Positions 27,846 to 63,520 of a stretch of DNA of 64,000 nt are shown here, piece after piece. Position 1 is the first letter of the stretch. Each line of letters begins with the position of its first letter. The stretch covers positions 4,874,994-4,938,993 of the forward strand of contig JABAKD010000019.1 in NCBI GenBank assembly GCA_012845835.1, written 5' to 3'. Made by a program: the position numbers and the translations under genes. Under the pieces are notes generated by a model. That model worked only from the letters and a program-made list of their open reading frames with translations. It did no database searches and was not told the DNA's origin. The DNA comes from Undaria pinnatifida. Lineage: Eukaryota > Sar > Phaeophyceae > Laminariales > Alariaceae.

Positions 27846-28236
27846 CGTGAGTCCTGAGACGCGTTCGTAAGTCCTGAGACCATATGGGGGCAAGTTGGAG
27901 GAGGTTTTTTGCCCAAGCCCGGCGCTTGCCACCATTGATTATTTCTGACCCCTTGCATTGACGCAAGGATTTACATACCTAAACAACCTAAAGTACAGTT
28001 TGACATCCCTTGCTCTCTCAATGTTGGCTTGCTTGCCAAGCCTCTTTGTTAGCGAAAGAGTGTGCAGTAAACCATCCACAGGGGCACAGCCTAGAAACGA
28101 ACCAAGCAAGGGAACAAAGTAAAAAAAAAGCTTCGATTTTTTTTTTTGTTTTTGTTTTTGTGCCTTGGAGCGCGGGGGGGGGGGGGGGGGGGAGGGGGGG
28201 TAGGTGTGCGGGATAACCTTCCTTGTGCGCCCTCGA
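27846..28236 (+). repeat. 0.39 kb dispersed repeat, copy 1 (partner 55.78 kb)
   Basis: Same orientation as 55784-56172 and strongly similar: TCGTAAGTCCTGAGAC, ATGGGGGCAAGTTGGAGGAG, TTGCATTGACGCAAGGA, GTGTGCAGTAAACCATCCA, then a poly-A/T and G-rich tract and GGATAAC-TT-CTTGTGCGCCC. The poly-G tract (28170-28199) is the variable part. Confidence 0.75.
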
Positions 28237-28239
28237 TAA

Positions 28240-29090
28240 TGCATAAAATAGAGTGTGGGAAAAAAAAGGAGCAGTCTAAATATGAATGGATATTACAGAA
28301 TGTTGAAGAAAGTGCCATGGCAGTTCAACTCTATTTTAGCATGTTGAAAATCTCGCTTGAAGCAGCTTGAAGCAGTACCACGAACCCCATACTCTGCGGG
28401 ATAACCACAGGCAGACACCGCAGAAATAGAAGCTGCAGTACAGCAGGCCGAATGAGTGATGAGAATCGGTGGTCGTGATCTCTAGGTAGTGGAGGCAAAG
28501 AATGAGACGCTTGATAGTTTATACAAAATGAGGGAGTCACGCAGTTCATGCTACGTACAGCAGTACAGAGGGCAAACATTCTCCCCGCTTTGACTCACTG
28601 TTTTCTTTGTGTGCGATGCAGACGAAACATTGGTATCCATGAATGGTGTAAATTGCTCCGCAAGGCATGCATTTTTTGCTTTCGATGCTTTCGTTATCGG
28701 ACTTACCTTTACGAGTAGTACTTCTGTATTGTTGTACCAGGTATGTATGCCATCGTGCCGTATACGTGCGTATCATATGTTCTGTATCTCTTTGCAGGTT
28801 GTGACAGACAGGTCGAATGTACGTAATGTGGCACGAGTAGTGTGGTGAAGTCTTCGTGCTAGGCATGTAGGAGACAGTGTACGTATGGCCTCTGACTGAC
28901 TCAAAATGGGCCGAAATGAGTGGAAAGCTAGACAAAGTAGACAAATCAAGGAGGCTGGCCAATGACAGGCGCCCTAGCGTGTGATATGCACTTGTTTTTT
29001 TTCAGTAGTGCTCTACCAGTTTTGACACTAAACTGACCAAGTATACCTGATTTTGCCTGAAAATACTTTCTTGTTTGTTTGGGTATCAGT
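28240..29090. other. 0.85 kb without a recognised gene
   Basis: Nothing recognised beyond short frames on both strands. Confidence 0.4.
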
Positions 29091-29102
29091 GCGTACTCAA
29101 TC

Positions 29103-29412
29103 TTTTGTTTTTTTTTTCTTCATCCTTCGGCGGATGGGGAAAAATAAGGCTTGAGCTCACCACACTTTCACGTATTTCCATACGCGTCGTGTGTCGATTT
29201 AACCCAGTTGCCTTCGCAGCCCAACGCTAGCTGGCGCACCCTTCGGATCCCATTGTAGGTATAGCGTAAGCTTTCCCTATCAGTGGTCTTCGTTACAACT
29301 CCGGCAGCGCAAGCTGCCGTTGTATACGGATGCGTGTGTATGTCAACCCGGCCTGTCCCCTGAGGGTCAGGTTCGGTGGAGATAGCCACCCGGAATGTCA
29401 TCTTTCCGGGTA
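29103..29412 (-). mobile_element. Full-length 310 bp poly-A retroposon with perfect 12 bp TSD
   Basis: Flanked by GCGTACTCAATC at 29091-29102 and again at 29413-29424. On the minus strand it runs from ACCCGGAAAGATGACATTCC to CCCCATCCGCCG-AGGATG followed by a poly-A tail. The last 90 bases (TTAAATCGACACACGACGCG, TACGTG-AAGTGTGGTGAGC, CTTTATTTTTCCCC) define a family seen at 47.6, 48.1, 50.4, 50.7, 51.8 and 52.1 kb. Poly-A plus target duplication points to LINE-assisted insertion. No clear tRNA, 5S or 7SL head is visible. A weak open frame crosses it, so it could be the 3' end of a LINE and not a SINE. Confidence 0.85.
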
Positions 29413-29429
29413 GCGTACTCAATCCATAA

Positions 29430-30700
29430 GGGATGCATACAGCAAGAGAGCGATGGTACGATGCGATTTCACAACTAAAGGGTATTTTAATTTTTACAAT
29501 ACCCGAACGCAGTCCAAATTTTTCAAAATTCGACTGGGAAAGATATACATGCATCCCTGCCTGCTAGTAAGCCTTGTCTACAGGCAAGCTGGGCGAGTAT
29601 CTATGTAGGCAGGATGGTGAGAGCGGAGTAACATGGACTGTCGAGCCAGTAACAAAATGCAGCAATAAAAATATGACACATAGTTTGCTCGTACATACAC
29701 CTATTACTACTACTACCGCTGTGTATACGGTCAAATGCTGTACGGCTGTGAGTAAACGAAGAGTATTATGTGTAGACTATATGTTATTATTGGGGATACT
29801 TGTTTGATTTACCTTGTACAGAATAGTACACAGAGTGGTCTTTATACTTCGCGAAATCGTAATCTACGGGCTGGGTTATTTTGGAAAAATATAGCAAGGG
29901 CTGACTAAGTTGTGTAAAATGTAGGAAGTAAATTAAAGAATACGAGAACAATTTTAGGAAAAAAGGATCATCACTGATTACGAGTAAATTTGTACGTAAT
30001 AAATCATTGTAAGAATGTGCTTGCGTTCATCATACGGGTTGAAAATGAGTTCGGGTCTGTCACTTGATCTACATTTGTTGCATACTGTGAGACGACCACA
30101 AGACAAGGGTTTTGTTGTTGCAGGCAGTTTGGTTTTGGCCTTTGTGATGGAAACTTTGTGTCTTCGGAGGTTCTACCGGCACTGCCAGGTCGTTCTCACA
30201 GGGGTTTCAGGAGTGATACTGCAAACTGGTTCTAGTTTTCAATCTTATTTGAGGAATGTAAGCCTTTCTATAGTTGCTCTTTGTCATGCTAAGAACCTAC
30301 CGGAATAGGAAACATGGTTTAGGTCCTAGTTTATAATTTTGTATGGGGAATGTAAGCCTTTTTATAGCTGCTCTTTGTCATGCTAAGAACTTACCGGAAT
30401 TGGAAACATGGTCTAGGGACATTATCATATTGGAATGGGAAGGGGGGAAGCTTGATGAGTACGTTGGGATTTTGAGGTTTGTAAAGAATACATTAATATT
30501 AATCATTGTTGTGTCTAAGATACCTAAGGGATTCCATACGTTACTCTGTTAGTGAAGACTCGAGCTTTCGAAGGGTTGCATGTATATTATGATAAGGGGA
30601 CAACTTTCAACAAACTAAAGAGGTAAATATTCATGTACTCGAAACCTTTCACAACCCGTTTTTCCCACCCACCTTGTCCCAAGCCACTGTTTATACCCGT
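29430..30700. other. 1.3 kb without a recognised gene
   Basis: Holds a 94 bp-period duplication (listed separately). Otherwise nothing recognised. It is the left flank of the retroelement; I searched it by eye for a long terminal repeat matching 39.2-40.2 kb and found none. Confidence 0.45.
30253..30422 (+). repeat. 94 bp-period tandem duplication
   Basis: GGAATGTAAGCCTTTCTATA and the following CTCTTTGTCATGCTAAGAAC occur at 30253 and again at 30347 with few differences, including AACATGGT-TAGG. The copies are about 75 bases long and separated by about 19 unrelated bases. Confidence 0.85.
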
Positions 30701-31259
30701 TTGGGGGGGTCAACTTGGTGTTACTAGACTCCATCGACCCCCTGGACTCCACTCGTCTCCCTAAAATACATCGTTGGATACAATCTTCACCTTATACGAC
30801 TCAGCTTCGTCGAGTACATGACGCAGCGTCGCCGAGTCGGTCGCGTACTGCACAACTTCGTCGAGTTCATCTTACTCTACACGACAGAAAAGCGAGAGGT
30901 TTCGTCAAAGTGAAACGGGCATCGACCCGGGGAGGAGGGGGGGGCGTGATTGGAGGAAGTAAGATGGAAGGAAGGGGGGGACCTTGTTGGGGACCTTTTG
31001 GTGCACCATACCCGACGGGACGCCCACCACAGGGAGGCCCGTCGCGGAGCGGCCAGGCTGGAAGCCCACCACATGGCGGTCAGGTTAAATTGGGTCCACA
31101 GGGCGGTGCAGCACAAGGGGCAGCAAGATCGGCAAATCCTGTAGGAGCGGGAGGCGGGTACAATCAGATGTTCCCTCTTTCCCTAATGTCACCCTTCGGA
31201 ATCGGAGGACGATGGGGTCCACAGGCAGCCCCAAGATGAGAACCACTGAACACTAAATC

Positions 31260-33280
31260 GCGATAGGGACCCCTCCGATGGCGCCACAACAACAACAGCC
31301 AGGGTTCCCTAGACAACAACAGCCAGGGTTTGCTGGCCAACAACAGCCAGGGTTCGCTGGCGAACAACAGCCAGGATTTGCTGGCCAACAGCAGCCAGGG
31401 TTTGCTGGTAAACAGCAACCAGGGTTCGCTGGCCAACAGCAGGCAGGGTTTGCTGGTCAACAGCAGCCAGGGTTCGCGGGCCAACAGCAGCCAGGGTTCA
31501 TCGGACTAGCGGGAGCTTAGGGATGGCAGGTACCGTGGAGTGGTCAACCCATGATATAGGGGTGGGGACCCCAGGGAGGACAACCTCCCTTTCCGCTAGG
31601 AAGTGGTGGACTACAGATCGGACATCTTAATGCGTTACACGACATCACAGAAGGATTGTCTAAAGAAGCCCAACGCATGGTGGACCACGTAGTCAAGGAA
31701 ATGGGGGTGGAAGGTCGGAAGAGCGCTTATGAGTCGGAGTTACAGACGGGAGAGGTGAAGAGACTCGATGAAGAACTATCCAGTGTTCATCCTTGACGAG
31801 TTAACAAAGGTATTTGCAAGACACCCAAACATGACCATGCCCAAAGACCAGTTGAATGGTACGAATCCAGCATCCCCACAAAGAGATGGACTGTCAGACG
31901 TGGGTGTGTCGTTTTTTATGCGCTTGCTACCAGACTCGTCTATGGTCAAGATGGCCTTTGCGAACCAAACCACAGTACGCGCGTACCTACGATCGATGAG
32001 CGCGAGGTTGTTAAGTTGGCCAAGGATCTCACCATCACAGAGTGGATGCGGGTCCTTCTAAGGGAAACAACAATTTCAGAAACATCGAAGGTCGCAGCCC
32101 AGCACACCTTAGAACGACTGGAGGTGTAATCGGGGAAAGGTTGGGCCGTGGCAGCGCGAGTGGTTCTGCTACACAAACGAGCAGCGATGGTGGACCCGAA
32201 TCGACCATTCTTGGTACTGGAGGATTACTTTTGGAAGGTCCTGTCGGAAACGTATACTATTTGGGAGTTGTCGGCGAATCGTCGGAATGGTGGCCCCACA
32301 CGACACAGACAAGTTCGGGGCGCCTCTCTACGACGTACAAGCACAGTGGGAGAGCCTCAGAGCCTTCCCGGTGAATACCGGACAGCTTCTCGACCGCACG
32401 ATGGAGCTGAGGGGAAGAAAGGCGTGTGATATTTTCGACAAATTTGTTGAGAAAATAAACATGCGAATCAGCGACTTCAGCGACCCGAAGATAACTGCCT
32501 CGACGAAAGCCAGGGGCACGCAAGCCTCGGTTTCTGCGTTTGGCGGCGCGTCAGGCGGACGGTCCTCGAGGAATGAGAGCGGCATGCGGGACATGGTCGG
32601 GGTCGGGCACATGCGTGGTGGACATAACCAAACCTCCCAAGGGCCTGCAGCGCGCGGAGCGAACTGGAGAGAATTCCCGGAAACGTGATGAGTCCTTGTC
32701 ACGTTACGAGGTGAGAGAAATGTGACCGAAGCTCGACATTGCCGCACTCGCATCGGAACCGTCGGATGAGGTGTACGTCGCCGACAGCAAGATGAGAGAT
32801 AAACTTATGCAATGGTTGGCCGCATATTCTACCCAACCAGCATCGTTGCCGGGGAAGGAAGGAACTCCTTTCGTCCCCACAGCACCTCGTCGAGACGGCG
32901 AGGACCCAAGCCACCCCAACGACTACCTCAGCACCAAGGCGGTGGAAGAACAAGAGAATAACGAACGGAGAACAACGAAGGACCCTCTTCCTCTACCGCC
33001 CAACACTGCGGCAAAAAAAGAAATTGAAGAAGCGCAAAGGAGACGCAACATTTGTTCCTTCCGCGCGCGAGGCCAGGACTATCCTTTCCACGAAACAGGA
33101 TGTCCCTCCTCTCACGAACAGGGAGGTGTCGCCTACGGCTTCTACAGGAACACGGTGCAGAGGGATGCGGAACAGGCCACAAACCAGACGTCGTACGACA
33201 TGACGTTTGCATATGATCTCGCTGGAAAAGGACCGTCAACGTCGACAGACGACACGGATGATACGGCGAAATGAGGACAC
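31260..33280 (+). mobile_element. Retroelement part: gag
   Basis: Begins with about nine tandem 8-residue units, QQQPGFAG and close variants (31277-31505, 24 bp period), a Gln/Pro/Gly/Phe low-complexity segment. A helical region follows (DITEGLSKEAQRMVDHVVKE), then a Gag-core-like section and a basic, polar end with Cys/His-containing sequence around 33045-33125 that may be the nucleic-acid-binding region. Assembly role is inferred from position ahead of protease and RT. Part of a broken fossil copy. Confidence 0.6.
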
Positions 33281-33399
33281 GCACCGGGAAGTCCAACATG
33301 CCCGGGGAAGCTAGTAGATAGGGAGAAGGTGACCGACGACAAAGAGAGTTCTTCTCACCACTCAGAAATGGGAGCACTGCGAACTAAGACGTCACAGGT

Positions 33400-34470
33400 T
33401 TGGGTTCATGCAACGTTGTGGCATGCAACGAGCTCGAGCCGGCGACTTCCGATCGCGGTGCTGGTGGGTACTGGGGCGGGCGAGGGAAACTACGTGTCAC
33501 GGCAGTTCATCGACTCCATCGAAGAACGGGATTGTTGGGGAAAGTCGTTGATAAATCCAACGGGAAAGGGCCTACTCAGCGCAGCAAACCCAAAGAACAG
33601 CGCCGTACCCCCGATGGAAGTGGTAGGCTCGTGCTTGCTGCCACTGGTCTTTGTACCGGTCGACCAAATCTGCCGTGTGAAGTTCAGGGTGGTGAAAAGA
33701 CTTCTGTATGCGATGGTGCTTGAAGTCGCGTTCATGACCGGCAATCGAAGTATCATCAGTTTCGATGGTGAGGAGGGTTTCCGGCCGACACCATCCTCAT
33801 CGTTGGTACCATTCGCTCCGAAGGAGGTTGGAGAGGCTGCAGCAGGAGCAATGTGTGCCGAATGGGACCACTATTGCGCGGTGAAACCATCGACAGACGA
33901 GCAAGAACCGGAAGAATTGGAGGAACCGATCATCCCGGCGGGGATTATGAACTTAGGAAGCTCTGTTTGGGAGGACGAAGGCGCTCTGCACTGGAAACTA
34001 CGCATTGCGAAAGACGTAGAGGTTCAAGGTGGTACCAGTATGCAGAGAGACGCTTTTGTCAAAGGCCCTCAACCTCAAGTACAGCAGCTCGTAGTGGTAG
34101 AACCAACTAACCGCTATGATCTTGAACTAGGAGTGGATCTAGGAGTGCCAAGGGGGGCACAGTGGTGGTTCCCGGGTATACCACTTCAGTGTAAGTTGTC
34201 GAATGTTACCCTGGATAGCGTGAAGAACCAGGGGGGGCTGGTGATTGCGACGGTTTACGCTGTCAACGATTACGATCGGGAACGCATAAAGTCACTCATG
34301 GACCCGGTGTCGGAGGAACCGACAAGCCCCAAACAGGACGAGTGGACCAAAAAGAAAGACACAGGGAGACCACCGGAGCAATGCAACAAAGGGGGTGAAA
34401 TCGCAGAGATTCCGAGCGAAGCCCCCAAGGTGGACCTGGGGGAGGCCAACCGCGGACAGCTCAGTCCGAG
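33400..34470 (+). mobile_element. Retroelement part: protease-like region and linker
   Basis: Near 33455-33760 the pattern IAVLVGTGAGEGNYVS followed by a beta-rich stretch resembles the retropepsin fold of Ty3/gypsy elements. A long acidic linker follows, rich in Glu, Pro and Lys, up to the RT. Protease assignment rests on position and this loose motif. Confidence 0.45.
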
Positions 34471-34479
34471 CGAAAATGA

Positions 34480-35390
34480 CGCATTGATGGGCATTCTCAA
34501 CGAGTACATCGACGTGTTCGTGGTCAACGCCAAGAGCGTACCAGCATGCAAAGGAGTGCCCATGCGCCTGGAGCTCAAAGATCCCAACGCCAAGCCATAC
34601 GTGGCACCCATTCGACACTACAGCCCGGAACAGCGCGAGATGACTCAGACTGAGGTGGTAAAACTCCTGAAGAATGGATCCATTCGGGAATCAACTTCCG
34701 AGTAGGCCGCCAATTGTTCGACGGTTCGCAAGAAAGATGGGACAATGCGGGTTGTGCAGGATTTTCGAGGTATCAATGCGCTTCTCAAATCACAGAGTGG
34801 TGGACTCGGGGACTTGCAGCACAGTATGGATGAAATGGAAGGGTCGAAATATTTCTCCAAAATCGATTTAGCTTCAGGATTCTTACAGCTCGAGATCCAT
34901 GAGGACGATCGACACTTAACGGCGTTTCGAGACGCTGACGGGAAGCTGTACAAATACGTTCGCTGCGGCTTCGGGTTGGAGACGGTGCCTTCGGCGTTTG
35001 CCAACTACGTTGGAGGGCGACTGGTAACAGTCAAGAATACGGGAATCAAGAACTGGTTGGACGACATCGCCATCCCGTCGAAAACCCTTGAAGATCAATG
35101 AGGACTGTTGCGAGAAACGTTAGAGTGTCTACGGCAGGGACGTCTAACCGTAAATCTTCAGGAATCGCATTTCTGTCAGTCGGTCATGGAGTTCGTCGGC
35201 ATGATCGTGGATAGACTTGGTACCAGGCCGGCCTCGAACAAGATTGATGCTATCACGCAGCTGTCAAGGCCGAACACGGTGGAGGAAGTGCCAGTGTTGC
35301 TGGGCATGATAGGGTACTTACGGCGATTCGAACCCCAGTATAGCAAAGTGCTGGCGCCCATTTCCGACTTGCTGAGAGATCCGAGGTTCA
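34480..35390 (+). mobile_element. Retroelement part: reverse transcriptase
   Basis: Upstream signature with YIDVFV, APIRHYSPEQ and VVKLLKNGSIRES, then VVQDFRGINALL, SKIDLASGFLQLEI, TAFRDADGKLYKYVRCGFGL, PSAFANYV and the LDDIAIPS active-site block, then the thumb and connection (HFCQSVMEFVGMIV, LGMIGYLRRF). These are the ordered RT blocks of Ty3/gypsy elements. It would copy the element RNA to DNA. Broken fossil copy. Confidence 0.85.
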
Positions 35391-35399
35391 GAACCAAGA

Positions 35400-35770
35400 G
35401 AGCGAAGAAAGAGAAAGTCCCGTGGGGAGAAGAGCAGAACAAGGCATTTAATGCGCTTATCGAGGTATTGACGTCACCTCCGATCCTAGCCCTGCCGGTG
35501 TGGACAGAACCGTTCTCGCTGTCAACCGATGCCAGTGAGATAGGAGCAGAGGCGGTGCTAACACAATGCATCGAAGAAGTGGACAAGGTGATCGCGTACG
35601 GCAGCAAAAGGTGGTCGAGAGGAGACTCCAAAACGTCAGCAACAGCCCGTGAATGCATGGCGGTCATGTGGGCAGTGAGCAAATTCCAACCCTATCTTTG
35701 GGGGCGGCGGTTCCCGCTCATCACGGACTGTTCGGCGTTGACTTGTCTCTTCAAAAGCCAATCTCACACC
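35400..35770 (+). mobile_element. Retroelement part: RNase H
   Basis: WGEEQNKAFNALIEVLTSPP then LPVWTEPFSLSTDASEIGAE, IAYGSKRWS, ARECMAVMWAVSKFQPYLWG and FPLITDCSALTCLF: the usual RNase H layout directly after RT in Ty3/gypsy elements, including acidic positions TDAS, ARE and TDCS. Confidence 0.8.
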
Positions 35771-36089
35771 GAAATACCACCGCTGGGCTCTAAGGTGGAT
35801 GGAGCACGACATAACCTTGAAGTGAAGGCCGGGGACACAACACCAGCTCCCAGATGCCATGTTGCGGTTACAGAACAAGAGCAACGCGATCGAAGATTTC
35901 GACGACTCTTTTCCAGGAGACGAGTCGTTGCCAAACGTTTACAAATGGCCACAGGGGCCAGTGCTCGATGGCGTACACCTCGAAACCTTAAGAGTGGAAG
36001 ATGTGAACGAATCTAGTACTCAAAAGTCTTAAAGTACTTGCAGCCGACGCACTCACACCCGTGGACCAATCAGAGGCAGATACTCAACA

Positions 36090-36970
36090 GACCAAGCTTG
36101 TCATCGCACCGGAGCTTCCAGTGGTGGTCATGCTCGACTGTAGGGGGGGAGGCAGCATCCTTGCATCAGAGGAATTGCTGACGGTCAGAGGACCAGGACT
36201 GGAGAGCACTGGAATGCATCAGAGCAAACGGAATGGACAGCGGTGCGAAGCTACTTTGGGTGACAACAGGGTCGCAGGAAGGCCTAACCATGTTGAGAAA
36301 GGTGAGACCAGACGTGGTGGTCGGTGACCCCTGCAGGAGGTTTAAAGGGATACGAGAGAAGAAAGGAATATCCGGAGCGAGTAGCTTAGCCCAAGCTGCC
36401 ATCGCCTCAGACGCGCGAGGCTTTATACTCGAATGTTTGGGCAACCTTTTCTGCGAACGACGGAATGGAACGACGAGATTCTTCCCGCTTTGGAACGAGA
36501 GTCATACATCGTGGACAAAGCGGAGATACTAGCGAGCCAAGTAGGGATTCCGCGGAGGAGGAAACGGACATTCGTGGTAGGAATCAAGGGAGGCCTTGCC
36601 ACAAAAGGGAAGTTAGCCGTTTGGGAGCCGAGGTGGGAGTAGGTAGAACAACCAGTTCAGGAAGTAGGGGAATTTCTGGGACGAAGACGCGCATTCTTCC
36701 TGAAGAGAGGTACCGGAGAGCGAGAGATTAACTCCTTCAACGAACCCATCATCTCTTTGAACCGTGCTCACATCATGGGGGAAAAGCCAACCGAAGGGCA
36801 TATCGCACACTCAGTGGATGCGGCACGCCTTAAACAAGCCGAAGAGTTGCACTTCAACGACTACGCCAAGATCACCACAGGGCAGGAACACTACGTGATC
36901 CCGCAGACGGTCAGCGAAAGCGCCGCGGCAAACATCATGGCAGATTTCACGTCTCTTCCAATGCTACGAG
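36090..36970 (+). mobile_element. Retroelement part: C5-cytosine DNA methyltransferase-like segment
   Basis: Placed between RNase H and integrase. In order it shows a motif-I-like start (PVVVMLDCRGGGSILASEEL, about 36116-36180), a motif-IV-like block with the Pro-Cys pair (RPDVVVGDPCRRFKGI, about 36309-36355), a motif-VI-like helix (ARGFILECLGNLF, about 36415-36455), a clear motif VIII (VGIPRRRKRTFVVGIKG, about 36541-36590), and a motif IX/X-like end (DAARLKQAEELHFNDYAK, then YVIPQTVSESAAANIM, about 36817-36945). The order I, IV, VI, VIII, X and the spacing fit DNA C5 methyltransferases. It belongs to the broken fossil element. The family call is inference from motifs; a profile search would be decisive. 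Confidence 0.65.
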
Positions 36971-37399
36971 CAGTATTAGTTGAACTAGTTGTTCAAGGCT
37001 TAATGAGAAAACCGGTACCAGAGGTCGCGGAACTAGAAGGATTGGCCTGCATGGTGTTTGAAGATTGCCTCGCACCAGCAAAAACCTTTGAGGTGACAAG
37101 AGCGGCCACGAGATCGCAGGCCAACGCCACTTCCCAGGAACCGAAGGTTGTCTGGGAGGCAGAACCGCCGTTACCTGAAGAGGAGGAGATGGAGAAGACA
37201 CCGGCGCAGACGATCACTACTACTGAACTCCCAGTGGAAGCTGATCGCCCACGCAAACGCAGGGGACAGATAAAGCCAATCCCGAGACCGAAACGGCAAC
37301 GCGATCCGTTGGAGGAATCATTAAAGGACACCAGCAGCCGTTCAAGCGAATCAGGGAAGAGACCAAGCGACCCCAGCGGTCAGAGCCATCCATGCTGGA

Positions 37400-38300
37400 A
37401 AGGGTGACAGCTATTCTCCATGATTTTCCACAGCTGATGCAGAGGTAGTGCGAAGACATGGCACTTGGCAAGATTTGGAATGAACTCCAGGAAGCGGGAA
37501 ACCGAGGATCAAGAGGTGGCTACTATGTGATGGGTGACAACCGCCTTTTGTGGGTAGCATCTCTGGGGAAGATGCCACGACTTGCAGTTCCCCAATCGCT
37601 CGTTCCAGCGATTATGGCGCTGGCGTACAGCACCTATGGGCATCCGGAGACGGCGAGAACTACAGCCTGGATTAGTCATCGGACTGCTGGCCTACCCTCA
37701 TCAAGGACGTTAGAGACTACGTCCTCTCGTGTGGATGCAGACGTCGCAAGCGGTCAGCGAGTCAACGGGTTGCCATGCTACCGTCGAGGTTCCTGCGACC
37801 CGGAGAAGTACTCGACGTCGACATCCAGGACATGGGGGTGAAGTCGGACGCAGGCAAAAAAAGTTCTACTGGTGGCAGTCGGCAAAGCCAGCAAGTTCTT
37901 GTTCGCCTTCCACTCCCCACAAAAGAAGCAATCGGAGTAGGGAGGAAACTGCTCGAAGTGATGCTTACGTTGGGGCTACCGCTGTATGTTCGCAGTGATC
38001 CGGAATCCTAGTTCACGGCAGAGGTGATGCAACACTTATTCAAGTGGTTGAACGTGACCATCGCATATGGGCCTGCCGATCATCTACGTGCACAGGGGAC
38101 GATGGAGAGACTGGAGGGGTGGCGACACGAAGCACTAGGAGAACTATGCAAGACTTGGCTTCGCAGATGTGACGAGTATGTACAACCGGCACTGTGGATC
38201 CATCGTACCTCGCCGGACCTGTGCTTACCGGGGAAGCCAACTCCCTTCCGCCTTTTCTTCGATCGTCATGCACGCACGCAAATTGATGCTAGGCACCCCG
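37400..38300 (+). mobile_element. Retroelement part: integrase (zinc-binding and core)
   Basis: YGHPETARTT matches the HPG/HxxxH part of the integrase H2C2 finger, with the Cys-rich half (SCGCRRRKRS) about 70 bases before the core. The core begins PGEVLDVDIQDMG (first Asp), continues through PLYVRSDPES (second Asp), then LFKWLNVTIAYGPADHLRAQ and GTMERL (Glu region). It would join element DNA to host DNA. Broken fossil copy. Confidence 0.75.
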
Positions 38301-38429
38301 ACATAGATGGTGGTGACTTCAGAGGCGGGATGCACAGTGACGTGGCCGACAAACGTCAAGCGTACAAGGAGGTACGGGATGTACGGATGGCTCTATCGAA
38401 AAGACATCAAGACAGACAGAAAAGTCGTG

Positions 38430-38780
38430 AGAGTCGGGATGCTGAAATTGGTCGGACCACGGTGGGAACTCATTTTGTTGTCGGAGGTAAGGTGCTGGTG
38501 AAGGAGGCGGAGTCTGTGATGGCAAGGGAAGGGATACATCATAACCTAGCCCACGAACACTGGACCGGACCTTAAGAGGTGACTGAAGTTGTCTCACCAG
38601 GACTCAGCTACATCGTCACGATGAATGGGCAAGGGATTCGCCGACGTCGGGCGTCAGCATCGAATATCAAGATGTTCTACTTACGTCCGGACGACCTCCG
38701 TCACGACTTCGAAAAGGAATTTGCTCACCTGGGATGGGGAGTTGACTTCGGACTGGCGGAGTCGTCGATCGAAGCGTAGC
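38430..38780 (+). mobile_element. Retroelement part: integrase C-terminal domain
   Basis: FVVGGKVLVKEAE, EHWTGP, EVVSPGLSYIVTMNGQGIRR and MFYLRPDDLRHDF follow the GPW-type and SH3-like pattern found after the core of Ty3/gypsy integrases. Confidence 0.65.
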
Positions 38781-38782
38781 CT

Positions 38783-39240
38783 ATGTATACCCTAATAGAC
38801 AGAAAGGCTGTGATTGGTCAGGGCAACGCTTGGAAGTGGCGATACAAGGGACGGTTCGTGGATTGCACAGAGTTGCAGTGGCTGTCCGAAGAGGAGGCAC
38901 GAGACAGTTTCACCCCTTTACAGCTAAACGTTTTCCATGCGCTGTGGGAAACGTATCACGGAGCAGAGTGTCAGGCAAGAAAAACTTCACGCTCACGCGG
39001 AAAGAAAGAGACGGGATCGACCGCGGAAAAGCGTTGAAACAACACCCCGTGGGGACCGTCATCTGGAGGGAATTCGGGGTCGCTGAAGGAAACAAGAAGC
39101 GTCAATTTTCCAAGGTCTTCGACTACAAGTCACCGTACTGGCGGGTTCGGTGCGCAGACGGTGATTGGGAGGAGCTCAACGAACGTGAAATCCTGAAAGG
39201 TGGGAGGACCGGAAATTTGCATTCCGGTTCCCCGTAAACG
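38783..39240 (+). mobile_element. Retroelement part: C-terminal extension with DGDWEEL domain
   Basis: First a chromodomain-like stretch (WKWRYKGRFVDCTELQWLSE, then FHALWETYHG), then GTVIWREFGVAEGNKK and YWRVRCADGDWEELNEREIL. The second part resembles a Tudor-like fold in which a DGDxEEL motif closes the barrel. Such tails may direct integration to chromatin. The Tudor and chromodomain labels are inference. Confidence 0.5.
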
Positions 39241-39484
39241 AGGAACGTGAAGTGGAGTTAGATGAAGAATGGGAGAAGAGTTTGGCCGAAGATCAACTAG
39301 CGAGCATGATCAAGGCCTCGGCCTACCCGGGTGGATGGGAAAAGCCGGGAAGTGGTGGATAAGAGGCTTTCAGCTGGTGCGCTTGATGAAAAGTTCTAGC
39401 AAGTCCAGCAGTACCGATCTGGGACCTAATGCGAAAAGGCGCGAGGTCCAGGGTCCCTACACCCCGAGAGACGCTTATTCCTGA

Positions 39485-40435
39485 AAATGGTGGACGCCAC
39501 TCATTCGAGCCTTAGGGTAATCGAAACACGACTAAGTGTGGGAAAAGGACCTCAATCATACTCCAGTGTATCCGCAGCCCGGTCAGCACGGTATTCTTGG
39601 GAAGCCGTGCTGGAGGGGTGTTGCGGCGGATTGACATGACGTCACATGAAATCCCGTGGCGGAATGCTACCTCATATGTCTGTAAAACTCCGATCAGTCT
39701 AGAAAGCGTGCCGCTCACGGCCTCAGTCCAAAAGCACACAAAACCAAACGAGGGAAAAAGGAACCTGAACTTGATCTGACACGAGTGTGAGTGACTGCGA
39801 ACCGAGCTTGAGTACAGCGATCGTTACCGTAAGGTATTGTGGGAGGTTTAATCCGGAGATCTGTTATATTGTACGAGCGCTTGGAAGAGGACTGCGTGAG
39901 ACGAGACTGATTTTTGCAGGCAGCTGTTGCAACAAGCAGACGGGAGGAATCAGCCTGAAGGTACACACGGAGGAGAAACGAACTAGAAGCGGTGAGAGAG
40001 TTGGGACAAGGGATTGGAGACTTGGGTACGTGTGTCTAATATACCTTTTTATCCGTTCGTTAAAATATATCTGACTAATCGTGTGATACTGACTTTTGTC
40101 GCCCTAGGATGGGCTTGGTGCATGGAGGGGAATGAAAAAAGAGCTTACTATGTCCTGTATACGGATAAATATGCATGTTATCAGTTCAACGCCAAGAACA
40201 CACACACTTTCATACGACAATTTAGGAATAAATAGCTAGATCCTGTTCCTACCATATTTGGCGTGCAATACAATAAACAGTACAAAAATGTATTGCTTAT
40301 AAGATGTAGCAGTCCTTCTCGGCAAGCTTCATTATGGAACAAATTGAGCGATTATTTCTGGCCAATATTTTTGTAGTTTTGAGGCTCCAGAAAGAGCTGC
40401 AATAAAAATAAGGGGCGTCTATTAGACTATAGCTT
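39485..40435. other. 0.95 kb right flank of the retroelement, no gene seen
   Basis: Searched by eye for a long terminal repeat matching 29.4-30.9 kb; none seen. Otherwise nothing recognised. Confidence 0.4.
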
Positions 40436-41853: not shown

Positions 41854-41956
41854 ACTACACTCCAACTGCTGTGAGATCGAAGATTTTGTCGAAACTCATC
41901 TCTGCAAGCTGTGTGTGATACTTCGATCGCGCGTATTACGGGTTGTGTGTCCTATT
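41854..41956 (+). repeat. PG-family head fragment D
   Basis: CACTCCAACTGCTGTGAGAT through GGGTTGTGTGTCCT, then abruptly the (TTG)n end of the next repeat. Only the first 100 bases of the family are present. Confidence 0.8.
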
Positions 41957-43341: not shown

Positions 43342-45262
43342 AAAATACACTCCAGCTGTGAGATCGAAGATTTCGTCGAAACCCATCTTTGCAAGCTGTG
43401 TGTGATACTCCGATCGCGCGCATTACGAGTTGTGTGTCCTCATTAAGGATATAGGTCGGCGAATCCCCTTACAACTACAGTGTAGCTATCAGGGTCAACA
43501 GGATGATTGTAGTCAGTCTGTGCGCGGAAACTATAAAACCCGTTTCTGAGGGGGACAAAATCTGACAGCTATGAAGGGAAATGTAACCTTTCATCAAGTG
43601 AATCTTGTAAGTCGAATAACCGGTGAGGGGGGTGGGGCGGAGTTTTGAAGGACGTGGGGGCCTGGTTTTGATCAAAAGCGAGCGGGTTTGGAGCGGGGGG
43701 GGGGGGGGGGAAAGGGGGCAATTTGTGCATGTAAGCTATAAATCCTTTCGAGGGGATAAATCTGACGGTTTTGGCACCAGTTTATTATTGGGGGGGGGGG
43801 GGGGGGGGCGTGTGAGGCAGCTCAATATGTGCGTGGAAACTATACATTATTTTGAGGGGATAGATGTGACGGTTTTGGAAATAATGCATCAGTTTATCAT
43901 GTATATCCTGGGGTAAGTCGTACAATCAGTGAGTAAAGAGAGGGTGGAATGTTCGAGGGAGTGGGGGTGGGATGGGTTGGGGGGGAGGTGGGGGGTGGGG
44001 GCCGGGGGGGGGGGGAGGAAGGGCTTTAGGTGAGGGGTTTGTTATACGTGTGGTGCTAGGTCTAGGCGATGGTGCGGGTGATGGGGAAGAAGGGGCCGTT
44101 CGAGGTGGGGGGGAGGGGGGGACACATCGGCATGGATGGCTCACGAAAGATAATGAGGTGATATCCTGTGCGTGAAGTGTTCATTAATGTGGCGGATTTC
44201 GATATTTGGTGGGGCGTTTGAGTAAGGGAGAGCAAGAAGGGGGGGGGGGGGGGGGAGGATTTTTTAGGAGGTTTAGGTCACAAATAATATTCAAATACAC
44301 TCCGGCTGTGAGATCAAAGATATGTAGCAGCTTGTTATACGCGTGGTGCTAGGTCTAGGCGATCGTGCAGGGGGTTGGAAAATAGTGGGCGTTGGAGGGG
44401 GGGGGGGAGGGGGGGGGGGGAATAATTGAAAACTACGTCATGGATGGTCGGAAAGATAATGACGTGATATCAACTGCGTATAGGTGTTCGTTACTCAGGC
44501 CGATTTTGATTGTGAGTGAGGCGTTTGGACAAACTAGGCGGAAGGGGGGGGGAATCGGGGGACGGGGGGGCGGGGGGGGAGGGTTGGGGTTTTTGATGAA
44601 CAAGAGGGGTCAGTGGAGGGGGAGGGAAGGGGGGGGGGGGGGGGGGGGGGACATTTCAATGTGTGCGCGGAAACTATAAATCCTCAAATGGGACAAACCT
44701 GACGATTGAAGCAATAAGACATCCCTTTATATCATCTGGCTTGTAATGTTTACTATTCTAAAAGGTTTGATGTTAGATGCAGCATGCAACCCAGTGCTTA
44801 AGTGTAGTAAATAACGTGTTAAATCTTCATAATTTGTTGTATGACACTCCGTACATGGATCGGAAGCTAGAATATTTTATAGAATATATGTAGGTACCAT
44901 TATTTTCTGACATCGCTAATTATAAGAAAGAGATACGTATTGTCAAATGCAACAGGCGAGGTGATGTGGTCATGCACTGTTTGTCACCATCATCATACAG
45001 TTACCATTATTTTCTGACATCGCTAATTATACGAAAGAGATACGTATTGCCAGATACAGCATGCGAGGTGATGTATATGGCCATGTACTGTCTCCGCCAT
45101 TGAGCATTGGAGGGAGGGATGCGAATCGTCAGTTTTAAAGGAACGCTTGGTATACATGTGCTCAATTACGTTACCTCGTTAGTCATACTTGGTATACACG
45201 CGCTCAATTACGTTACCTTGTTAGTAATACTTCGCTTGGCATAGGTTGGGAGGCTGTTTATG
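43342..45262 (+). repeat. PG-family repeat, near-complete copy E
   Basis: Best plus-strand copy. Head 43342-43580; module phrases GGAAACTATAAAACCCG (43527), AAGCTATAAATCC (43732), GGAAACTATACATTA (43835) and GGAAACTATAAATCC (44669), each followed by a GGGACAAA/GGGGATA and CTGACGG block; G tracts between modules (43700-43720, 43790-43810, 43980-44025, 44238-44265, 44395-44420, 44625-44650); non-G tail from about 44700. The tail itself contains an 80-110 bp duplication (ACCATTATTTTCTGACATCG at 44896 and 45002; TTGGTATACA-G-GCTCAATTACGTTACC at about 45148 and 45189). Confidence 0.85.
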
Positions 45263-61105: not shown

Positions 61106-63405
61106 CGTAAGGTATTTCGTACATACCGTCTGCATGATCGCCTCCCAACCTACACCAAGCGAACTATGACTAACAAGGTAACGTAATTGAGCGCGTGTAT
61201 ACCAAGTATGACTAAGGAGGTAACGTAATTGAGCGCATGTATACCAAGCGTTCCCTAAAAACACAGACGATTCGCATTTCTCCCTCTAGTGCTCAATGGC
61301 GGAGACAGTGCATGACCACATCACATCGCATGTTGTATTTGACAATACGTATCTCTTTCTTATAATTAGCGATGTCAAAAAATTATGGTAACCACAAATA
61401 AATGTTCTATAAAATATTCTAGCTTTTGATTCATGTACAACAACAAATTATGAAGATTTAACACGTTATTTACTACACTTAAACACTGGGTTGCATACTG
61501 CATCTAACATCAAGCCTCTACAATAGTAAACATTTTCAGGCAGATGGTATAAATGGATGTCTTGTTGCCACAATCGTCAGTTTTGTCCAGGGATGTACTT
61601 TTGCTAAAATTGTCAGGTTTGTCTCTATTGTTTCCGCGCATATATTGAAAAGTCCCGCCCCCCCCACTCCTCCCCCTCCCCCGAATTTTTTCGTTCAACC
61701 TCCCCCCCCCCCTCCCCCAATCCCTCCCCCCGACCCCCCCCATTTCCGCCTAGTTTGTCCAAACGCCCTACTCACAATCGAAATCGGCCACAGTAATAAA
61801 CACCTATACGCAGTTGATATCACGTTATTATCTTAGTACTGACCATCCATCACGTAGTTTTCATTCTTTCTCCCCACCCCCCTCAACCCTCCCTCCAACG
61901 CCCCCTCTGCTACAATCGTCAGGTTTGTCCAGGCATGTCTTCTTGCTACAATCGTCAGGTTTGTCCCCTTTAAGGTGAAGGGTTTATTGTTTCCGCGCAC
62001 ATATTGAAATGTCCCGCCCCCCCCTCCCCTCCCCCTCCCCCGATCCCTCTTGTTCAAAACCCCCCCACCCCTTCCCCCCCGCCCCCCTCCCCCGATCCCT
62101 CCCCCCCGCCCCCCCTCTTTCCGCCTAGTTTGTCTAAACGCCCCACTCACAATCGGAATCGGCCAGATCAATAAACACCTATACGCAGTTGATATGACGT
62201 CATTATCTTTATGAGCATCCATGACGAAGTTTTCATTCTATCCCCTCCACCGCCCCCCAAAACCCCCCCCTCCAACGCCCCCTCTTTTCCAACCACCCGC
62301 ACGATCACCTAGACCTAGCACCACGCGTATAACAAGCCCCTACATATATTTGATGTCACAGCATGAGTGTATTTGAATATTATTTGTGACCTAAACCTCA
62401 TAACCCCCCCCCTCACCCTCCCGCTGCCCCCCCTCCTTTCTCGCTCTCCCTTGCTCAAACGCCCCACCTAATATCGAATTCCGCCAGATTAATAAACACT
62501 CAACGGACTGGATATCACCTCATTATCTTTCTAGAGCCATCCATGCCGCCGCTTTCCCCCCCCCCCCCCCCCCCCCGCCCTTCCTCTCCACCACCCGCAT
62601 CATCGCCTAGACCTAGCACCACACGTACAACAAACCCCTCACCTAAAACCCTTCCTTTCCCCCCCCCACCCCCCGGCTCCCACCCCCCACCTCCCAAACC
62701 CCCCCCACCCCATCCCAGCCCCACCCCCTCGAACACTCCGCCCTCTCCCTACTCACTAATTGTACCACTTACCCCAGGATATACATGATGAACTCATGCA
62801 TTCTTTTCCAAAACCGTCACGTTTATCCCCTCAAAGTATTGTATAGTTTCCATGCACAGATCGAGCTGCCCCACACGGCCCACCCCCGCCCCAACCCCCC
62901 CCTTATGATCAACTGGTGCATTTTATTTTATTTTTTATTATATTTTTTTCTTGTCTTTTCCAAAACCGTCAGATTGATCCCCTTGAAAGGATTTATAGCT
63001 TCCACGCACAAATTGCCCGCCCGTCCGCCCCCCCCCCCCCCCCCCCCCCTTCCAACCCCGCTCGCTTTTGATCAAAACCAGGCCCCCACGTCCTTCAAAA
63101 CTCCGCCCCCCCCCTCACCGGTTATTCGATCTACAGGATTCGCTTGATAAAAGGATACATTTCCCTCCACAGCTGTGAGATTTCGTCCCCCTCAGAAACG
63201 GGTTTTATAGTTTCCGCGCACAGACTGACTATCATCATCCAGTTGACCCTGATAGCTACACTGTAGTTGTAAGGGGAGTCGCCGACCTATATCCTTAATG
63301 AGGAAAAAACAACTCGTAGTACGCGCGATTGGAGTATATGCACACAGCTAGCAAAATGAGTTTCGACGAAATCTTCGATCTCACAGCTGGAGTGTATTTT
63401 CATTT
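61106..63405 (-). repeat. PG-family repeat, longest copy L
   Basis: Mirror image of copy E: tail (61110-61545, CTAACAAGGTAACGTAATTG twice), modules with C tracts (61655-61740, 62015-62120, 62400-62460, 62550-62580, 62650-62720, 63025-63050), and head ending in ACAGCTGGAGTGTATTTTCA at about 63385-63404. Confidence 0.85.
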
Positions 63406-63520
63406 TTTATACTAGTTTCGACGAATTCTTCGATTTCCCAGCTGGAGTGTGCTTTCATTTTTTATAATCGACCAAACCTTCGATCTCACAGCTGGAGTGT
63501 ATTTCTATTTTTTATAATAT
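63406..63520 (-). repeat. Stacked extra PG termini
   Basis: After the end of copy L the terminal 50-60 bases recur twice more (TTCGATTTCCCAGCTGGAGT at about 63430; TTCGATCTCACAGCTGGAGT at about 63479), each followed by TTTTTTATAAT. Confidence 0.8.

What the first reader, a model, noticed from the sequence alone, without database searches (positions are those of the whole stretch)
36090..36970. A C5-cytosine DNA methyltransferase segment inside a Ty3/gypsy-type retroelement, between RNase H and integrase
Seen: ordered motif-I, IV (with Pro-Cys), VI, VIII (VGIPRRRKRTFVVG) and IX/X-like blocks lie between readable RNase H and integrase. Known: captured DNA methyltransferases in retrotransposons have been reported in dinoflagellates and charophyte algae, in unrelated element classes. 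Inference: this may be another capture, in a different host group and position. Such an element could methylate its own new DNA copies and evade or exploit host silencing. The copy here is a broken fossil.
Basis: partly seen in the sequence, partly recalled or inferred. Interest (0 to 1): 0.92.

Follow-up and report, generated by a model that had tools for sequence, protein, structure and literature searches.

The report
Retrotransposon carrying its own DNA methyltransferase
A family of "copy-and-paste" DNA parasites in what looks like a brown seaweed genome carries, inside its own enzyme set, a captured DNA-methylating enzyme domain that evolution seems to have kept, although the copy first noticed is a dead fossil.

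Summary
The stretch is a broken C5-cytosine-methyltransferase-like domain between RNase H and integrase of a Ty3/gypsy LTR retrotransposon, and a family feature, not a private insert. In the host assembly (511 Mb; probably a brown alga) 39 other near-full-length copies are 91-93% identical (capped list). Unaltered open frames join RNase H to the domain and the domain to integrase. Of 36 genome-wide DNA_methylase candidates, 33 hold this family's sequence. Of 40 integrase copies, 30 have the whole domain; the other 10 are deleted or truncated, none with a clean empty site. Changes shared by three or more copies show purifying selection like RNase H; private ones look neutral. A Tudor-like chromatin reader follows the integrase.

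Corrections: the Pro-Cys is private to the window copy (1 of 32); the family has Ala-Cys, and ENV is ECL, though the catalytic Cys, Glu and two Arg are kept. Motifs IX/X lack profile support. The published charophyte case is itself a Gypsy element. So: a new variant of a known kind; activity unproven.

The parts
28236..40062 (+). Extent of the Ty3/gypsy element copy still recognisable in the window; the 5' LTR is missing
   Evidence: blastn against the two flanks of a copy with both LTRs, and against other copies
34706..35098 (+). Reverse transcriptase fragment
   Evidence: PF00078 E 5.7e-11
35423..35764 (+). RNase H
   Evidence: PF17919 E 5.6e-27, PF17917 E 6.1e-23
36097..37041 (+). C5-cytosine-methyltransferase-like domain (broken here by frameshifts and stops)
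   Evidence: homology to the open domain of other copies; PF00145 in 11 of 11 open pieces; profile-profile match
36121..36156 (+). Motif I-like VVVMLDCRGGGS (AdoMet site)
   Evidence: read; lies at the start of the profile-profile alignment, not significant alone
36311..36343 (+). Motif IV-like DVVVGDPCRRF; Cys codon 36332-36334; the Pro is private to this copy
   Evidence: family column counts
36422..36445 (+). Motif VI-like FILECLGN (ENV changed to ECL)
   Evidence: Glu in 31 of 32 copies, one gapped
36541..36582 (+). Motif VIII VGIPRRRKRTFVVG (family WRRKR; both Arg of QxRxR kept)
   Evidence: PF00145 E 6.2e-4
37500..38560 (+). Integrase region (H2C2 zinc finger and rve core; frameshifted here)
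   Evidence: PF17921 E 0.19 and 0.043 in the window; in other copies H2C2 down to 8.8e-14 and rve to 1.8e-9; 40 copies scored genome-wide
39118..39192 (+). Tudor-like domain after the integrase
   Evidence: PF21743 E 0.04 in the window; 6 of 6 open pieces from other copies, E 1.3e-4 to 0.022, all under the curated cut-off
39619..40062 (+). 3' LTR (444-column match, 93.9% to the 441-bp LTR of another copy)
   Evidence: blastn

Best explanation
The stretch is an old dead copy of an LTR Ty3/gypsy family whose Pol runs RT - RNase H - C5-methyltransferase-derived domain - spacer - integrase - Tudor-like domain (shown in pieces, in unaltered frames of several copies). The domain was captured before the copies now in this genome arose (inferred from its presence at the same place throughout), and the lineages that transposed kept it under purifying selection (shown by a contrast of widely shared with private changes, with the limits given). 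It keeps the four residues that do the chemistry in C5-MTases (Cys of motif IV, Glu of VI, two Arg of VIII), but the Pro of Pro-Cys and the Asn of ENV, which touch each other in M.HhaI, are both replaced (Ala-Cys, Glu-Cys-Leu). Most likely it is a working, perhaps slow, element-encoded cytosine methyltransferase that sits in the Pol particle between RNase H and integrase and marks the new cDNA or the insertion site (inferred, not shown; I put activity at about 0.5). A structural or binding role of an inactive domain stays open. The confidence below is for the domain's identity, place and maintenance, not for activity.
For: Identity: 11 of 11 open pieces match PF00145, 10 of 11 match each of two PHROG DNA-methyltransferase families; hhalign 45.8 against at most 27.8 in 300 shuffles; an HMM of 13 C5-MTases gives the 11 pieces 12.1-22.5 bits against at most 5.5 for 2000 shuffled sequences, of which 1271 were reported. 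A PF00145 scan of the whole genome returned 36 candidates: 33 hold this family's sequence, one of them only a 192-bp piece outside the element, and 3 lie together on C33. Place: unaltered open frames hold RNase H plus the domain (L007 19.9 bits; L021 only 13.0) and the domain plus H2C2 plus rve (L019, L006, L015); RNase H runs into the domain in 19 of 20 loci. Family: 40 places counting the window, of 138 candidates; 30 of 40 integrase copies carry the whole domain, the other 10 carry deletions or a truncation and none shows a clean joint. Mobility: 441-bp LTRs TG..CA, 4-bp target duplications in 3 of 5 LTR pairs looked at; 7 of 9 flank pairs show LTR matches, 93.7-100%. Selection in 32 copies: private changes 0.93 of neutral with 16 stops; shared by 3 or more copies 0.42 with no stops (0.29 without the window and two C22 near-twins); RNase H in 20 copies 0.97 and 0.35; Fisher p 0.005, 0.0005 and, for RNase H, 0.0006. 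Residues: Cys 29, Glu 31, Arg157 31, Arg159 30 of 32, roles as in PMC4802922 (passages).
Against: Profile scores are modest; an hmmsearch of the PDB with the family profile found no methyltransferase. N- and C-terminal parts have no significant match alone. Pro-Cys and ENV are both altered. Changes shared by exactly two copies look neutral (0.96, or 1.09 without the window and near-twins), so the selection signal rests on 65 (52) widely shared changes; RNase H itself has 2 shared stops. Copies were those most like the window or its integrase, alleles are treated as independent, and gene conversion between copies could mislead. No clear CpG-transition excess (C at CpG 0.028, elsewhere 0.021; G at CpG 0.019, elsewhere 0.030). 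No relatives found in viral or prokaryotic contigs, by two short peptide patterns each. No structure was predicted.
Confidence: 0.88

Rival explanations
1. The domain is a catalytically dead methyltransferase relic kept for structure or nucleic-acid binding, for instance to position integrase or hold cDNA, much as Dnmt3L (recalled) is an inactive partner of active enzymes.
For: Pro-Cys is Ala-Cys in 29 of 32 copies and ENV is ECL; no clear CpG decay; negligible 5mC is reported for Ectocarpus (PMC12477816, passage) and only DNMT2-type enzymes for Saccharina japonica (PMC6916402, passages).
Against: The Cys, Glu and both Arg of the reaction are nearly invariant; changing the Asn of ENV in Dnmt3a left binding normal and cost about tenfold in rate, and the Pro gives only its backbone carbonyl to that contact, which Ala also has (PMC4802922, passages; the last step is my inference).
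Confidence: 0.4
2. The stretch is a private insertion of a gene fragment into one dead copy.
For: In the window alone the frame is broken and one frame has a Pfam hit.
Against: 39 other copies share it at 91-93% identity, in frame with flanking Pol domains in several.
Confidence: 0.01
3. Chance resemblance: the region is ordinary Pol spacer that mimics methyltransferase motifs.
For: Scores near the curated cut-off; signal concentrated in about 70 columns; no methyltransferase by PDB profile search.
Against: Pfam and PHROGs agree, NCBIfam weakly; shuffled controls stay far below; 33 of 36 genome-wide candidates hold this sequence.
Confidence: 0.06

Closest known systems
KnitGypsy-Dnmt3 of the charophyte Klebsormidium nitens (PMC5890265; part 1 of 7 of the text and passages seen)
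   Same: C5-methyltransferase inside the Pol ORF of an LTR Gypsy element, without introns; purifying selection reported (Ka/Ks < 0.2)
   Different: There a Dnmt3-related enzyme with conserved key residues in a green-lineage alga, in an element whose repeats are arranged as in DIRS; here plain 441-bp LTRs with 4-bp duplications, non-canonical motifs IV and VI, no DNMT subfamily assigned, a probable brown alga. The order relative to RNase H and integrase in KnitGypsy was not in the text I saw.
SymbioLINE-Dnmt and SymbioDIRS-Dnmt3 of dinoflagellates (PMC5890265)
   Same: DNMT captured by a retrotransposon
   Different: LINE and DIRS classes; DNMT upstream of the RT ORF or in a DIRS Pol with a tyrosine recombinase
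Ectocarpus Gypsy lineages with chromodomain, Tudor (Gypsy-10_Ec32) or NADAR domains (PMC12477816; passages and section 5 part 1)
   Same: Brown-algal Ty3/gypsy with accessory domains in Pol; like Gypsy-10_Ec32 this element has a Tudor-like domain at the C-terminus
   Different: No C5-type DNMT is mentioned in what I read; the supplements were not open to me. Whether this element belongs to the Gypsy-10 lineage was not tested (no RT tree).

Membership tests
LTR retrotransposon, Ty3/gypsy type | Two direct LTRs TG..CA with short target-site duplication | tested here: met
   441-bp LTRs; LTR matches in 7 of 9 flank pairs; 4-bp duplications in 3 of 5 pairs; the window copy keeps only the 3' LTR
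LTR retrotransposon, Ty3/gypsy type | RT - RNase H - integrase order with RNase H of the RT_RNaseH kind and H2C2/rve integrase | tested here: met
   no RT tree was built
C5-cytosine methyltransferase (PF00145) | Profile match over the curated cut-off | tested here: met
   22.4 bits for L007; of 36 genome matches 14 are over the cut-off and 1 more with its neighbours, 2 of these 15 on C33 and not this element and 1 the L109 piece; window copy 19.7, not met
C5-cytosine methyltransferase (PF00145) | Catalytic Pro-Cys in motif IV | tested here: not met
   Cys in 29 of 32, Pro in 1 of 32
C5-cytosine methyltransferase (PF00145) | Glu of motif VI and two Arg of motif VIII | tested here: met
   31, 31 and 30 of 32
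C5-cytosine methyltransferase (PF00145) | Motifs I, IX and X | tested here: inconclusive
   motif I aligned only within the whole-domain match; slices not significant
C5-cytosine methyltransferase (PF00145) | Methylates cytosine | not testable with these tools
   no clear CpG-transition excess is weak evidence against lasting CpG methylation
Dnmt3-type retrotransposon DNMT (KnitGypsy-Dnmt3) | Dnmt3 subfamily sequence | not tested
   no eukaryotic DNMT set was fetched; I judged the divergence too high for a trustworthy tree
Tudor-bearing Gypsy of brown algae (Gypsy-10_Ec32) | C-terminal Tudor domain after integrase | tested here: inconclusive
   PF21743 in 6 of 6 open pieces, E 1.3e-4 to 0.022, all below the 27.2-bit cut-off; in L026 in one frame with H2C2 and rve

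The most novel reading that the evidence does not exclude
A brown-algal gypsy family carries both an active, non-canonical (Ala-Cys/Glu-Cys-Leu) cytosine methyltransferase and a Tudor-like chromatin reader in Pol, in a group where a studied kelp is reported to have only DNMT2-type enzymes. The element, not the host, would then be a source of 5mC, writing it on its own cDNA or target site during reverse transcription or integration rather than for host silencing.
Probability: 0.3. Interest if true: 0.85.

Novelty: new variant of a known kind. Interest (0 to 1): 0.64.

Why it matters
It adds what looks like an independent case, in a distant eukaryotic group, of a gypsy retrotransposon keeping a DNA methyltransferase, in a group where host cytosine methylation is reported to be very low. 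That makes a question testable: why would a mobile element keep such an enzyme if the host hardly uses methylation for silencing? It also offers a candidate, other than DNMT2, for the low 5mC reported in a kelp.

Tried and rejected
Private insertion: rejected. Chance: rejected by shuffles. The Pro-Cys as ancestral: rejected as the less simple reading, since the window copy falls inside one of the two halves of the midpoint-rooted copy tree and has a long terminal branch (0.049 against a median of 0.020). Relatives or a donor: none found with alignment A1 in viral or prokaryotic contigs, none in phages for one window piece, no methyltransferase in the PDB by profile; one window piece matched M.HhaI at E 0.1 and another no methyltransferase. 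Structure prediction was not attempted: the tool lists the loci it accepts, and those of the genome search are not among them. A count of RNase H copies was wanted, but did not complete. One shuffled value equalled the real one, by my reading because an old output file was read; one search repeated the control with files deleted first (0 of 300 reached it). Literature searched for earlier reports; I saw nothing on a C5-type DNMT in a brown-algal gypsy element, but only open-licence papers are held. PMC6338049 (passages) says in general that DAM- and DCM-encoding Gypsy and DIRS elements occur in stramenopiles among others, with no such case named in what I saw.

Full report
What was checked. 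The finding says that a C5-cytosine methyltransferase segment lies between RNase H and integrase of a Ty3/gypsy element at 36090-36970. In the window RT (34706-35098, E 5.7e-11) and RNase H (35102-36013, E 5.6e-27) are clear, the integrase is broken and weak, and one of the frames covering the segment matches PF00145 at 19.7 bits, E 6.2e-4, under the curated 22 bits. The frames with motif I and motifs IV/VI have no hit alone; NCBIfam dcm gives E 0.017 for 1 of 4 pieces; the PDB gives M.HhaI at E 0.1 for one piece and no methyltransferase for another. On this copy alone the claim would be only suggestive.

The family. The window is part of a 511,146,479-base assembly in 68 contigs. A DNA search with the segment scored 40 of 138 candidates: the window itself and 39 others, nearly all matching positions 3-881 of 881, 91-93% identical, on many contigs. 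Twenty of these became loci. An open frame of 770 codons in L007 holds RNase H (E 3.2e-27) and the methyltransferase match (19.9 bits); frames of 727, 713 and 707 codons in L019, L006 and L015 hold the methyltransferase match followed by H2C2 and rve integrase. Of 9 frames given to, 8 matched PF00145, with E from 2.1e-4 to 0.2, and L017 did not. RNase H runs into the domain in 19 of 20 loci (window included); L012 showed no RNase H part in its stretch.

Is it present in all copies? A search with the integrase region scored 40 of 194 candidates. By coordinates 18 of these 40, the window among them, belong to copies in the list. I fetched the expected place in the other 22: 12 have the whole segment and 10 do not. 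Four of the ten were looked at over a longer stretch: three keep element sequence on both sides with internal deletions whose ends differ, and one is truncated. Nine of the ten keep pieces of the segment, and the tenth keeps short pieces. Two deletions share the same ends (L091, L095). None of the ten shows a clean joint between RNase H and integrase, so I read the losses as secondary. Both searches are capped at the 40 best places, so a more distant sister family without the domain could have escaped.

An unbiased view. The Pfam DNA_methylase model run over the whole genome gave 36 candidates. Three lie together on C33, two of them the best scores. The other 33 hold this family's sequence: 19 by coordinates from earlier calls, 14 by fetching the place and comparing it. 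One of the 14, L109, has only a 192-bp piece with flanks that do not match the element. The window copy scores 17.8 bits there. Genes with introns match poorly in such a search, so it does not show that the host has no DNMT of its own.

Is it a C5-methyltransferase domain? Eleven open pieces (alignment A1; two are near-twins) all match PF00145, best E 5.7e-5, L007 22.4 bits, and two PHROG DNA-methyltransferase families match 10 of 11 each. Against 13 C5-MTases (E. coli Dcm, and 12 phage enzymes) profile-profile alignment gives probability 81, E 1.2e-5, score 45.8, colinear through motifs I to VIII. Column-shuffled controls reach at most 27.8 in 300; the reversed alignment gives 16.2. An HMM of the 13 enzymes gives the 11 pieces 12.1-22.5 bits; of 2000 shuffled sequences the best gets 5.5. 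The signal is concentrated in motifs VI-VIII; slices with motif I, with IV-VI or after VIII are not significant alone, and a PDB search with the family profile found no methyltransferase.

Catalytic residues. Over 32 copies the motif IV Cys stands in 29, the motif VI Glu in 31 (one gapped), and the two motif VIII Arg in 31 and 30. The residue before the Cys is Ala in 29, Thr in 2 and Pro only in the window; ENV is ECL. In the copy tree the window lies inside one half and has a long private branch, so its Pro is most simply a chance change in a dead copy. PMC4802922 (passages) gives the Glu, Cys and two Arg as the residues of the reaction, and says that in M.HhaI the Asn of ENV bonds to the backbone carbonyl of the Pro of PCQ, and that changing this Asn in Dnmt3a left binding normal with about a tenfold lower rate. 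Here both partners of that contact are replaced while the four reacting residues stay. That fits a working but altered enzyme about as well as a dead one.

Selection. Codon by codon over 32 copies, changes seen in one copy look neutral (0.93 of the neutral expectation, 16 stops), changes shared by exactly two still do (0.96, 2 stops), changes shared by three or more do not (0.42, no stops). Without the window and two near-twins the three values are 0.83, 1.09 and 0.29. In 20 copies the domain gives 1.00, 0.76 and 0.38, the RNase H part 0.97, 0.56 and 0.35 (with 2 shared stops), the spacer 0.70, 0.66 and 0.48. Fisher tests of widely shared against private: 0.005, 0.0005 and, for RNase H, 0.0006. 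Copies decay freely once inserted, but the lineages that transposed seem to have kept the domain about as strictly as RNase H. Limits: the copies were those most like the window or its integrase, and alleles are not independent. CpG sites show no clear excess of transitions.

The element. Copies have 441-bp LTRs beginning TGTTG and ending TTACA, with 4-bp duplications in 3 of 5 LTR pairs looked at. Of 9 pairs of flanks 7 show LTR matches at 93.7-100%, one of them cut by the end of the stretch, so some insertions are recent. The window copy keeps only its 3' LTR (39619-40062) and internal sequence from 28236. After the integrase comes a Tudor-like domain: E 0.04 in the window, and E 1.3e-4 to 0.022 in 6 of 6 open pieces from other copies, all below the curated cut-off; in L026 one unaltered frame holds H2C2, rve and the Tudor-like match. 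In 7 of 9 copies the stretch 31500-33343, presumably in gag, is absent; five of them resume at the same base, and one lacks neighbouring sequence too. The methyltransferase-like segment is in all nine because they were picked by it.

Host. PF19114 (EsV_1_7_cys) gave 150 scored matches of 2162 candidates, all over the cut-off, and none in 14 control genomes. PMC7457493 (passage) says that this family has expanded in brown algae, with a patchy spread elsewhere. A brown alga is likely; no tool names the species. In that group Ectocarpus is said to have negligible 5mC (PMC12477816, passage), and Saccharina japonica only DNMT2-type enzymes with about 1.4% of cytosines methylated (PMC6916402, passages).

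Comparison with what is known. Retrotransposon DNMTs were described in dinoflagellate LINE and DIRS elements and in a charophyte LTR Gypsy element (PMC5890265). The kind is therefore known, including in Gypsy. What differs here is the host group, the plain LTR structure, the altered motifs IV and VI, the place between RNase H and integrase, for which the text I saw gives no counterpart, and the company of a Tudor-like domain. Brown-algal Gypsy elements are reported to carry chromodomains, Tudor and NADAR domains (PMC12477816, section 5 part 1); no C5-type DNMT was mentioned in what I read. I rate it a new variant of a known kind. The odds are those of my draft; the Tudor correction did not move them.

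Noticed in passing
L001 and L002 (G000:C33:9582545-9596797): Two partly broken C5-methyltransferase genes about 11 kb apart, the best PF00145 matches of the genome (65.8 and 34.1 bits); by eye they look like part of an inserted large DNA virus, which was not tested.
   Followed up: no
L109 (G000:C31:7037000-7038000), 439-628: A 192-bp piece of the methyltransferase-like domain (motifs VI-VIII, 95% identical) with flanks that do not match the element; the tool gives a 220-codon open frame there.
   Followed up: partly
window 31500-33343: This stretch, presumably in gag, is absent from 7 of 9 copies examined, five of which resume at the same base (33343), including a copy with identical LTRs; one lacks neighbouring sequence too. 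It suggests a subfamily lacking it that was moved in trans yet keeps Pol with the methyltransferase-like domain.
   Followed up: partly
window 39118-39192; L026:3-2273, L024, L028, L030, L032, L036: Tudor-like domain (PTM_DIR17_Tudor) at the end of Pol, E 0.04 in the window and 1.3e-4 to 0.022 in 6 other copies, all under the curated cut-off; reminiscent of the Tudor-bearing Gypsy-10_Ec32 of Ectocarpus.
   Followed up: yes
window 31290-31499: A 24-bp tandem repeat (8.8 copies) in the presumed gag region, coding a repeat rich in Q, P, G, F and A.
   Followed up: no
window 41868-41953 and 43355-43440; 63359-63517: An 86-bp pair (93% alike) that may be pieces of another mobile element; a 55-bp repeat near the window end seems by eye to share part of it in reverse.
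   Followed up: no
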